Positions 1,690 through 51,164 of a DNA stretch of 51,717 nucleotides are shown piece after piece (positions within the stretch are counted from its first letter, which is position 1; each line of letters opens with the position of its first letter). The translations under genes were made by a program, and so were the position numbers. The notes under the pieces were generated by a model that searched no databases, was not told where the DNA came from, and saw only the letters and a program-made list of their open reading frames with translations. Source of the DNA: Bacteroidota bacterium (lineage in GTDB: Bacteria > Bacteroidota > Bacteroidia > Cytophagales > UBA9547). The stretch covers positions 1 through 51,717 of the forward strand of contig RDZG01000085.1 of NCBI GenBank assembly GCA_004293915.1. Reading direction: 5' to 3'.

Positions 1690-2298
1690 ATGGTTTCTAT
1701 TGTAGTTTCAGGCATGATTTTGGGCTTTGCAATAGCCATTTTGGTTGGTCCCGTTTTTTTCTTATTGCTCAATACGGCACTCCGTAAAGGCTGGTTACCA
1801 GCTATTTATATTGCTTTAGGTGTTGCAATAAGCGATATCATTTATATTTTGGCTATATATTTGGGCTTTTCGAGATTCGAAAACAGTTTAATCTCGCATG
1901 ATGTATTAATTTTTGCTGGAGGTGTTTTATTAATTGCATTTGGGCTTGTGATGATAGGCAAAAAGATAAAAATAGAACCCACCGATGAATTAGTTTTTAC
2001 TAATAAAGAACGAATAAAATACCTGTCTCGAGGCTTTATGCTCAATTTTATCAATCCATCGGTAATTATTTTTTGGATTGGGGCAGTAAGTGCCGCTACT
2101 ATAAAATTAGAAAATAATAGCGGATTAATTTTTGTGTTTTTTACCGCTACCATGCTTACAGTTTTTTTGTTTGATGTTTTTAAAATCTATCTTTCACGAA
2201 AATTATCGGCTATAATAACCGAAAAATCGCTTCGGATTATTAATATTGTATCTGGAATTGCAATGGTAATTTATGGTTTTTATTTACTTGTATTTTAA
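1690..2298 (+). CDS. LysE/RhtB-family amino-acid exporter
   Basis: This is a 202-residue, very hydrophobic protein with about six membrane segments. It opens with the typical LysE pattern: a first helix ending in AILVGPVFFLLLNTALRKG (about residues 15-33) and a second helix with IALGVAISDIIY. A central charged loop (GKKIKIEPTDELVFTNKERIK) precedes GFMLNFINPSVIIFWIG, the family's conserved N-P-kink helix. LysE-type proteins export amino acids or related metabolites across the inner membrane by secondary transport. The substrate cannot be read from the sequence. It is a single-gene unit, divergent from the pRiA4b-like gene. Confidence 0.85.
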   Translation: MVSIVVSGMILGFAIAILVGPVFFLLLNTALRKGWLPAIYIALGVAISDIIYILAIYLGFSRFENSLISHDVLIFAGGVLLIAFGLVMIGKKIKIEPTDELVFTNKERIKYLSRGFMLNFINPSVIIFWIGAVSAATIKLENNSGLIFVFFTATMLTVFLFDVFKIYLSRKLSAIITEKSLRIINIVSGIAMVIYGFYLLVF

Positions 2299-2310
2299 AT
2301 TTATTGGCTA

Positions 2311-2524
2311 TGTTTTGAAATTTACAACAAAATTTGACTTTAAAACATTGCAATATTGATAGGATGAAATCATTTTAATTAAATATTTGCCACGAATGCA
2401 CGAAAAAAACACTAAAGATTAGTGAATTCGTGGCAAAAAATAATAGAAAAAAATTGGATTTGAACTTGTATCTTCAAATCCAATTAGGAATTTAACAAAT
2501 GTTGTTTAATTTAGAATATAGCCC
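2311..2524 (+). repeat. Dispersed ~214-base repeat, copy A
   Basis: The whole stretch between the LysE stop and the next gene aligns by eye to the reverse complement of 49584-49797, with roughly 80 percent identity and few gaps. Shared blocks include AATTTACAACAAAA, ATTTGCCA, TGCACGAAAAAAACACTA, TTCGTGGCAAAAAA, GGATTTGAACTT and GGAATTTAACAAATGTTG. An imperfect palindrome lies at its centre: TTTGCCACGAAT (2386-2397) pairs with ATTCGTGGCAAA (2426-2437), a 12-base perfect stem with a 28-base loop. No ORF is seen. The repeat ends about 10 bases before the glycosyltransferase start, so that gene's leader probably derives from it. Confidence 0.8.
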
Positions 2525-2533
2525 ATTTATTTT

Positions 2534-49559: not shown

Positions 49560-49583
49560 AAAAGACCAAAAAAATAAAAATAT

Positions 49584-49797
49584 TCGGCTCTATTCTAATT
49601 TAACAACATTTGTTAAATTCCTTATTAGACTTGAAGATATAAGTTCAAATCCAAATTTAATTCTATTATTTTTTTGCCACGAATTTACAAATTTCTAGTG
49701 TTTTTTTCGTGCATTTATGGCAAATATTTAGTTAGAATGATTTTCTCCTATCTTTATTGCAATATTTCAAAATCATGTTTTGTTGTAAATTTAAAAA
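49584..49797 (-). repeat. Dispersed ~214-base repeat, copy B
   Basis: This is the inverted counterpart of 2311-2524. Its reverse complement keeps the same order of blocks: AATTTACAACAAAA, GCAATA, ATTTGCCA, TGCACGAAAAAAACACTA, TTCGTGGCAAAAAA, GGATTTGAACTT and GGAATTTAACAAATGTTG. The central palindrome is damaged: TTTGCCACGAAT (49673-49684) faces ATTTATGGCAAA (49713-49724), which now carries two mismatches. It lies between the transposase remnant and the LuxR remnant. The surrounding stretch 49560-50058 holds no intact gene. Confidence 0.8.
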
Positions 49798-49802
49798 CAC
49801 AG

Positions 49803-49949
49803 CAGAAAAAACGGAAACGAAATAGCCGTCTTAATGGGTAATAGTGCTAAACTATTCGTACGCACAAAAAAAATATTGCTAAAAAAACTAAAACACATTC
49901 TGTTATCGAAATGATTGAAAAAGCTAAAACTTTGGGTTGGATAGTATGA
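49803..49949 (+). pseudogene. Frameshifted LuxR-type helix-turn-helix remnant
   Basis: Reading from about 49812 gives GNEIAVLMGNSAK, which fits the first helices of a LuxR/GerE HTH. A one-base loss near 49850 shifts the frame, after which IRTHKKNIAKKTKTHSVIEM and EKAKTLGWIV continue the recognition helix and the dimerisation helix to a TGA at 49947-49949. Compare VKKHRKNIVKKADVKNMYEM in the intact regulator at 50394-51164. The N-terminal sensor part is missing. The similarity is by eye and the fragment is short, but the joined frames keep the residue order of the HTH. Confidence 0.6.
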
Positions 49950-50058
49950 TTTTTTTTAAAAATACCGCAACTAGGGGATGTTTTTTTGATTTTTTTATGT
50001 ATTATTTTGTAGCTGATAAAATTGGTAAAATAATTAACCTCTTTTATAAGTCAAAATA

Positions 50059-50382
50059 ATGAAAAAAATAATTACGCAATTTGGCAATATTTCAGTTTAC
50101 AATAGCAAAGTTGATGTATTGAAAAAAACGATTTTGTTTTTACATGGAAATTCGTGTAAAAGCCAAACTTTGGCACACTTAAATATTAAATCCTTTTCTA
50201 TCTATTCTGTTAAAAACGAAAAAATTGTAAACAACGATTACATTTCAAAACTAAATATTCCAACTTTATTTGATAAAAAAATACACATGATAGAAAACAC
50301 CTCACATTTTCCTCAATTAGAAAATGTAAAGGATTTCAATGCCCTTCTTTTACAATTCGCAAATTATTGTTTTTCATTTTAA
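50059..50382 (+). pseudogene. Alpha/beta hydrolase with internal deletion
   Basis: The ORF of 107 residues joins the N-terminal part of an alpha/beta hydrolase (KKTILFLHGNSCKSQTLAHL, the oxyanion HGNS strand) to its C-terminal part (VNNDYISKLNIPTLFDKKIH and MIENTSHFPQLENVKDFN, with the catalytic-His region). The about 150 residues between, including the nucleophile elbow (GxSxG) and the acid, are missing. Full-length relatives have about 250-270 residues. The frame is kept across the deletion, so a short protein could be made, but it cannot be an active hydrolase. Confidence 0.7.
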
Positions 50383-50393
50383 TACTATATTTT

Positions 50394-51164
50394 ATGAACA
50401 CAAATGATCAAAAAGAATTAGCAGAAAAATACTTACAATTTTTTGAGCAAACCCAAAATGCCGATAATACAGAGCAACAAATGGATGAAATTAACACGAT
50501 GCTCGATACAGCATTGCAATACAGTCCTTCGGCTTTTTTTATCATCAACTATCAAAAAATGAAATTTGAATACTTATCTCCAAGATTGAAACAACTTTTA
50601 GGCGATGATTGGACAAATTATTTGAATGAAAGACCCAAATATACACTTTCTAAAATGCTTCCATCGCATACAGAAATATTTGTAAATAAAGTATTACCCG
50701 AAATCAAAATGCAACTTGCAAACATACCTATGGAAGAACGTATTAATTACCTTTTTAGCTATAATTTTATTTCCATTTGCAATTCAAAAATATTTAATTT
50801 TATGCAAGAAAACAGATATGTCCACTCGATGCCCGATGGCACACCGCTCATGGCTTTCGCCAATGGCATTGACATAACGGGAACATTACCTGATAATTTG
50901 ATGAAACTTACTGTGCATCAGATTTTAGAAAACCAATATGAATTGGTATTTGAAAAAGAATTTGTAGTAGAAAAAAAAGAGCCAGAAACTTATACGGAAC
51001 AAGAAAAAAAGCTGATTTTACTTTTTAAAAAAGGTCTTGATTCAAATCATATTGCTAAAGCCATGAATTTATCGGTTGAAACTGTAAAAAAACACCGTAA
51101 AAATATCGTTAAAAAAGCAGATGTTAAAAATATGTACGAAATGCTGCTAAAAATGCGAAAGTAG
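50394..51164 (+). CDS. LuxR-type transcriptional regulator with PAS-like sensor
   Basis: The start is the ATG at 50394 (MNTNDQKELAEKYLQ), which gives 256 residues. The N-terminal two thirds (about residues 30-165) look like a PAS-type sensor (SPSAFFIINYQKMKFEYLSPRLKQLLG). The C-terminal HTH (about 195-256) has EQEKKLILLFKKGLDSNHIAKAM and SVETVKKHRKNIVKKADVKN, the LuxR/GerE pattern. The ligand is unknown. The hydrolase remnant lies immediately upstream, and a frameshifted HTH remnant of similar sequence lies about 450 bases before it, suggesting an old tandem set of such regulators. Confidence 0.85.
   Translation: MNTNDQKELAEKYLQFFEQTQNADNTEQQMDEINTMLDTALQYSPSAFFIINYQKMKFEYLSPRLKQLLGDDWTNYLNERPKYTLSKMLPSHTEIFVNKVLPEIKMQLANIPMEERINYLFSYNFISICNSKIFNFMQENRYVHSMPDGTPLMAFANGIDITGTLPDNLMKLTVHQILENQYELVFEKEFVVEKKEPETYTEQEKKLILLFKKGLDSNHIAKAMNLSVETVKKHRKNIVKKADVKNMYEMLLKMRK

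What the first reader, a model, noticed from the sequence alone, without database searches (positions are those of the whole stretch)
2311..2524. Long dispersed repeat with an inverted copy 47 kb away
About 214 bases at 2311-2524 align to the reverse complement of 49584-49797 with about 80 percent identity, far above chance for intergenic sequence. The unit has no ORF but has a central hairpin built on TTTGCCACGAAT. One copy forms the leader of a GT39 gene; the other lies in a decayed zone next to a transposase remnant. It could be a non-autonomous element, a structured RNA gene or a relic of a mobile element's flank. The TGCCACGAAT core resembles a motif I associate with intergenic repeats in other Bacteroidota genomes, but the full 214-base unit may be unnamed.
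Basis: seen in the sequence. Interest (0 to 1): 0.65.

Follow-up and report, generated by a model that had tools for sequence, protein, structure and literature searches.

The report
Small non-autonomous transposon family (MITE)
The repeat is one of about 40 copies of a 220-base DNA parasite that carries no gene of its own and was most likely moved around this one bacterial genome by the transposase of a larger insertion sequence with matching ends; this is an ordinary kind of element, apparently not described for this lineage.

Summary
The two window copies match at 85% over 231 bp (E 1e-67), and the host genome holds about 40 copies, about 24 nearly full length. The unit runs from 2306 to 2523: 218 bp, no ORF of 100 aa or more, imperfect ~24-bp terminal inverted repeats. 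Copies are flanked by 8-bp A+T-rich direct repeats: 12 of 23 copies match at 7 or 8 of 8 positions, against 1.2% of mismatched flank pairs. Copy 1 split a lysE–GT39 gene pair that was 9 nt apart. It is a MITE.

An insertion sequence in the same genome has matching left and right ends and also makes an 8-bp duplication (GGATATAA). Its middle is missing from the assembly. A decayed relative matches the NCBI IS1595 transposase model (spliced reading, E 5e-8, below the curated cut-off). The neighbouring transposase remnant is IS1634 family and unrelated. Copy 2 sits in a rearranged duplication, so it lacks a target duplication. Covariation and Rfam searches give no support for an RNA gene. No other copy was found in 58 searched relatives, plasmids or phages. 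New member of a known kind.

The parts
2306..2523 (+). MITE copy 1, full length (218 bp)
   Evidence: Ends defined by 23 aligned copies; 96% to the family consensus
2306..2329 (+). left terminal inverted repeat GGCTATGTTTTGAAATTTACAACA
2500..2523 (-). right terminal inverted repeat (inward GGCTATATTCTAAATTAAACAACA)
2298..2305 (.). left target-site duplication AATTTATT (includes the last base of the lysE stop codon)
   Evidence: 7 of 8 identical to the right one
2524..2531 (.). right target-site duplication CATTTATT, two bases before the GT39 ATG at 2534
2386..2437 (.). internal palindrome 1, TTTGCCACGAAT...ATTCGTGGCAAA
2452..2485 (.). internal palindrome 2, 13-bp perfect stem AATTGGATTTGAA/TTCAAATCCAATT; terminator-like on the minus strand
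49586..49804 (-). MITE copy 2, full length but without matching target duplication; part of a duplicated, rearranged segment
49805..50011 (+). C-terminal remnant of a LuxR-type response regulator gene, flank of copy 2, 93% identical to an intact gene on contig C81
48678..49559 (-). IS1634-family transposase remnant next to copy 2, not part of the MITE

Best explanation
[quoted passage not shown] Shown: discrete ends, paired TIRs, 8-bp target duplications, about 40 dispersed copies in one genome, and an IS in the same genome whose left and right ends match the MITE's left and right ends and which also leaves an 8-bp duplication. Inferred: the IS transposase binds the GGCTATRTTYT..ACAACA ends, moves the element into A+T-rich intergenic DNA and duplicates 8 bp; the element arose from an IS copy (or joined IS ends) that lost its gene. 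The parent IS is probably of the IS1595 family. Insertions mostly settle between genes. Copy 1 split a tightly spaced lysE-GT39 pair and now forms the whole GT39 leader, so it probably changed that gene's expression (not tested). Copy 2 was moved by duplication and rearrangement, not by its own transposition.
For: Own-genome search: 42 matches, about 24 nearly full length. Flanks of 23 full copies: mean 6.2 of 8 matching positions at the exact ends against 3.5 for mismatched pairs; 52% against 1.2% reach 7 or 8 of 8. TIR pattern: 43 hits in the own genome, 0 for the reversed control. IS ends: right end at the ends of contigs C20, C21, C98 and C139, left end at the starts of C45 and C113, all as exact overlaps of about 99 bp. 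The flank of C20 and the flank of C113 carry the same 8 bases, GGATATAA, so one IS copy most likely joins them with an 8-bp duplication. MITE-left to IS-left 25/30, MITE-right to IS-right 23/30, with the polarity (ACAACAAAA against ACAACATTT) kept beyond the TIR. Decayed relative of the IS at C49:40151 (78% over the left 93 bp); a spliced reading of its interior matches NF033547 transpos_IS1595, E 5.1e-8. IS1595 members usually have 8-bp duplications, and the related Merlin elements terminal GG (PMC8101967); ISApl4 makes A/T-rich 8-bp repeats (PMC12561309). All 23 full copies are intergenic. Joining the flanks of copy 1 gives TAA-ATTTATTTT-ATG, a 9-nt spacer.
Against: The interior of the matching IS is absent from the assembly, so its transposase has not been read; the IS1595 assignment rests on a decayed relative read across frames (33 bits, below the curated 75) and on general properties. 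No empty site was found in a relative: the two held congeners are only about 68% identical and have other gene orders there. Eleven of 23 copies lack a duplication of 7 or 8 of 8, which fits their age (86-97% to consensus) but is not proof.
Confidence: 0.93

Rival explanations
1. The unit is a structured RNA gene or riboregulator amplified in the genome.
For: Very stable fold, -59.2 kcal/mol, z -7.9.
Against: The fold is largely the TIRs plus two palindromes. No Rfam family. No covariation beyond column shuffles: 2 pairs changed on both sides observed, 2.6 expected. Copies sit in all gene orientations, and target duplications show that the unit moves as DNA.
Confidence: 0.03
2. The core palindrome is the functional unit (a Bacteroidota-wide 3'-end element), and the MITE is a vehicle that picked it up.
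For: TGCCACGAAT(14-44)ATTCGTGGCA occurs in 8 of 395 genomes of the phylum, reversed control 0; outside this genome 8 of 9 loci examined lie 6-9 bp past a stop codon; a standalone copy follows a stop codon in congener G001. Palindrome 1 is the better kept of the two internal stems (93.9% of cells paired).
Against: Not abundant: one TGCCACGAAT 10-mer in 400 kb of G394, where 0.6 are expected. The tails are T before and A after the stem, the reverse of an intrinsic terminator. MITE copies show no preference for convergent sites (3 of 23).
Confidence: 0.15
3. The unit is a remnant of the IS1634-type element next to copy 2 and was spread by it.
For: Adjacent to copy 2; L025 shares 26 bp beyond the right end with copy 2.
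Against: The shared 26 bp belong to the 3' end of an ordinary gene on C81, not to the IS. The transposase has one copy in the genome, and the other full-length copies lie at unrelated sites, many with their own 8-bp duplications.
Confidence: 0.01

Closest known systems
MITECca01 of Cardinium (Bacteroidota), derived from IS982-family ISCca4 (PMC9769881)
   Same: About 240 bp, no gene, ends match an IS in the same genome with some sequence kept beyond the left end, many mostly intergenic copies, restricted to one lineage
   Different: Different parent family; 169 copies
BrickBuilt, MITE239 and related MITEs of Porphyromonas gingivalis (PMC4596501)
   Same: Intergenic MITEs in a Bacteroidota genome whose TIRs match resident IS elements
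   Different: IS5-family TIRs (GAGACC...), 4-bp duplications, internal tandem repeats; here GGCTAT... and 8 bp, with internal palindromes instead
IS1595 family insertion sequences (e.g. ISApl4, PMC12561309) and Merlin relatives (PMC8101967)
   Same: 8-bp A+T-rich duplications; terminal GG (stated for Merlin; ISApl4 ends are GGGG)
   Different: Those carry a transposase; this unit has none, and the inner TIR sequence differs

Membership tests
MITE | Short and without transposase gene | tested here: met
   218 bp, no ORF of 100 aa or more
MITE | Terminal inverted repeats | tested here: met
   about 24 bp, 18/24 identical in consensus without gaps
MITE | Target-site duplications of fixed length | tested here: met
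   8 bp; 12/23 copies at 7-8 of 8, control 1.2%
MITE | Many dispersed copies | tested here: met
   42 matches, about 24 nearly full length
MITE | Ends match an autonomous IS in the same genome | tested here: inconclusive
   Matching IS ends on six contigs, 25/30 and 23/30; that the IS is autonomous could not be read because its interior is not in the assembly
IS1595 family (parent) | 8-bp target duplication | tested here: met
   GGATATAA on both sides of one inferred IS copy, and the MITE copies
IS1595 family (parent) | DDE_Tnp_IS1595-type transposase | tested here: inconclusive
   Only the decayed relative at C49 could be read: NF033547 at 33.1 bits, E 5e-8, cut-off 75; no convincing Pfam match
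Structured RNA family | Match to a described family, or covarying base pairs | tested here: not met
Intrinsic terminator (palindrome 1) | U-tract directly after the stem | tested here: not met
   Stem 1 is followed by A's on the + strand and was not called by the scan; only palindrome 2 was called, minus strand

The most novel reading that the evidence does not exclude
The MITE carries, and spreads, a separately conserved Bacteroidota palindrome (TGCCACGAAT...ATTCGTGGCA) that elsewhere sits alone a few bases past stop codons and acts as a 3'-end or protein-binding element of unknown kind, so that the transposon distributes a ready-made regulatory part.
Probability: 0.15. Interest if true: 0.5.

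Novelty: new member of a known kind. Interest (0 to 1): 0.25.

Why it matters
It explains what looks like conserved intergenic sequence as transposon copies, and shows that a gene leader (GT39) is of transposon origin. It also suggests a concrete MITE and parent-IS pair in an uncharacterised Bacteroidota lineage, which repeat annotation would miss because the IS interior is not in the assembly. Beyond that it is ordinary.

Tried and rejected
Autonomous IS through the IS1595 family model in the own genome: the one hit above the cut-off (C107) has no matching ends and looks like a Merlin/ISXO2-type gene. TIR hits in four order-level relatives (1-2 mismatches) lie in or beside ordinary genes, with no paired end seen. 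The TIR pattern in all GTDB genome contigs gave only a Pseudalkalibacillus gene and one lone end in a Flavobacterium; the genome of the window may be left out of that collection. Viral contigs, plasmids, phages: none (the plasmid protein hit was a chance match). Empty site in congeners: gene order differs. A weak protein hit in G013 was spurious. I first took palindrome 1 for a bidirectional terminator and dropped that, since its tails have the wrong polarity. Literature search for the core 10-mer gave only unrelated papers among those listed.

Full report
Observation. The window aligned to itself pairs 2307-2535 with the reverse complement of 49574-49803 at 85.3% identity over 231 columns, E 1.1e-67.

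Copies in the genome. The window is a contig (C103) of a 3.85-Mb, 156-contig Bacteroidota genome. The 226-bp query finds 42 separate matches there, about 24 of them nearly full length, at 79-97% identity to copy 1; further low-scoring rows are the palindromes matching themselves. Some matches are contig ends and may be the same copy, so about 40 is the honest figure. Among 58 relatives (two of the same genus) only two weak matches appear, both limited to the core hairpin. Plasmid and phage collections hold none.

Anatomy. Twenty-three full copies align over 237 columns with mean column identity 85%. The unit begins GGCTATGTTTTGAAATTTACAACA and ends in the near-inverse TGTTGTTTAATTTAGAATATAGCC. 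With these ends fixed, the 8 bases outside the left end and the 8 bases outside the right end agree at 6.2 of 8 positions on average, against 3.5 for mismatched flank pairs; 12 of 23 copies reach 7 or 8 of 8, against 1.2%. Examples: AAAATTTT, AAATTATA, AAATTTAG, AATAGTTT, CTGTTTTT. This is the signature of transposition with an 8-bp target duplication. Copies are 86-97% identical to the consensus, the closest pair 98%, so the family is a mix of older and younger insertions. All full copies lie between genes, in divergent (9), tandem (11) and convergent (3) settings.

Copy 1. Removing the element and one target copy gives TTTTAAATTTATTTTATG: the lysE stop codon and the GT39 start codon were 9 nt apart. 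The element therefore split a likely co-transcribed pair and now forms the GT39 leader. Whether that lowers, raises or leaves GT39 expression is not known.

Copy 2. It has no matching duplication (4 of 8). Its right flank (26 bp) is the 3' end of a gene that is intact on contig C81, where a truncated MITE follows it, and its left flank is the C-terminal part of a response regulator that is intact on C81 too, at 93% identity. Order and orientation fit a duplication and rearrangement of that segment (inference). The neighbouring transposase remnant is IS1634 family (NF033559, 152.9 bits), has no second copy in the genome and has nothing to do with the MITE.

The probable mobilising element. A variant of the TIR, GGCTATGTTCTTATATTAACAACA, stands about 98 bp from the end of contigs C20, C21, C98 and C139, and GGCTATGTTCTTAAAAATACAACA at the same distance from the start of C45 and C113; the overlaps are identical, which is how an assembler leaves a multi-copy IS. 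The eight flank bases on C20 and on C113 are both GGATATAA, so one IS copy most likely joins these contigs with an 8-bp duplication. The IS left end (a reading frame MGDTRDILKIFEELPILD... starts 45 bp in) matches the MITE left end at 25/30, the IS right end the MITE right end at 23/30, and the left/right asymmetry just inside the TIR is shared. The interior is missing from the assembly. A decayed relative at C49:40151, 78% identical over the left 93 bp, has an interior whose spliced reading matches the IS1595 transposase model at E 5.1e-8. IS1595 elements usually make 8-bp duplications (PMC8101967, PMC12561309). IS1595 is therefore the probable parent family, but its defining transposase has not been read in the matching IS itself.

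RNA alternative. The single-strand fold is strong (z -7.9) because the unit is built of inverted repeats. No Rfam family matches the window, and the two stems show no covariation beyond column shuffles. A structured RNA gene is not supported.

The core palindrome. TGCCACGAAT(14-44)ATTCGTGGCA was sought in 395 genomes of the phylum: 21 sites in the own genome (some outside recognised MITE copies, at C19:17350 and C25:9875), and 1-3 in seven genomes of one other genus; the reversed control is zero everywhere. Eight of the nine foreign loci examined lie 6-9 bp past a stop codon, and a congener has one just past a stop; two of the nine are the same locus in two species. It is not abundant, however. 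Its tails (T before, A after) are the reverse of an intrinsic terminator.

Verdict. A MITE, probably of IS1595 parentage: a new member of a well-known kind.

Noticed in passing
L107-L113, L115 (genomes G394, G367, G079, G227, G083, G274, G297), L043, L106: Palindrome T-run-TGCCACGAAT...ATTCGTGGCA-A-run occurs alone in other Bacteroidota, 8 of 9 foreign loci 6-9 bp past a stop codon; tail polarity is opposite to an intrinsic terminator. Function unexplained.
   Followed up: partly
L066 1497-2230 (G000:C49, around 40151): Decayed copy of an IS1595-like insertion sequence, related to the IS whose ends match the MITE.
   Followed up: partly
L097 (G000:C107:1891-2544): Intact ORF over the IS1595 family cut-off that resembles Merlin/ISXO2-type transposases, apparently a different element.
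   Followed up: no
L031 424-826 (G000:C28:8723-9131): One nearly full and two partial MITE copies stacked head to tail.
   Followed up: no
window 49805-50011 and 50367-51164: Remnant of a LuxR-type response regulator beside copy 2, and a further LuxR-type gene downstream; signs of local duplication.
   Followed up: partly
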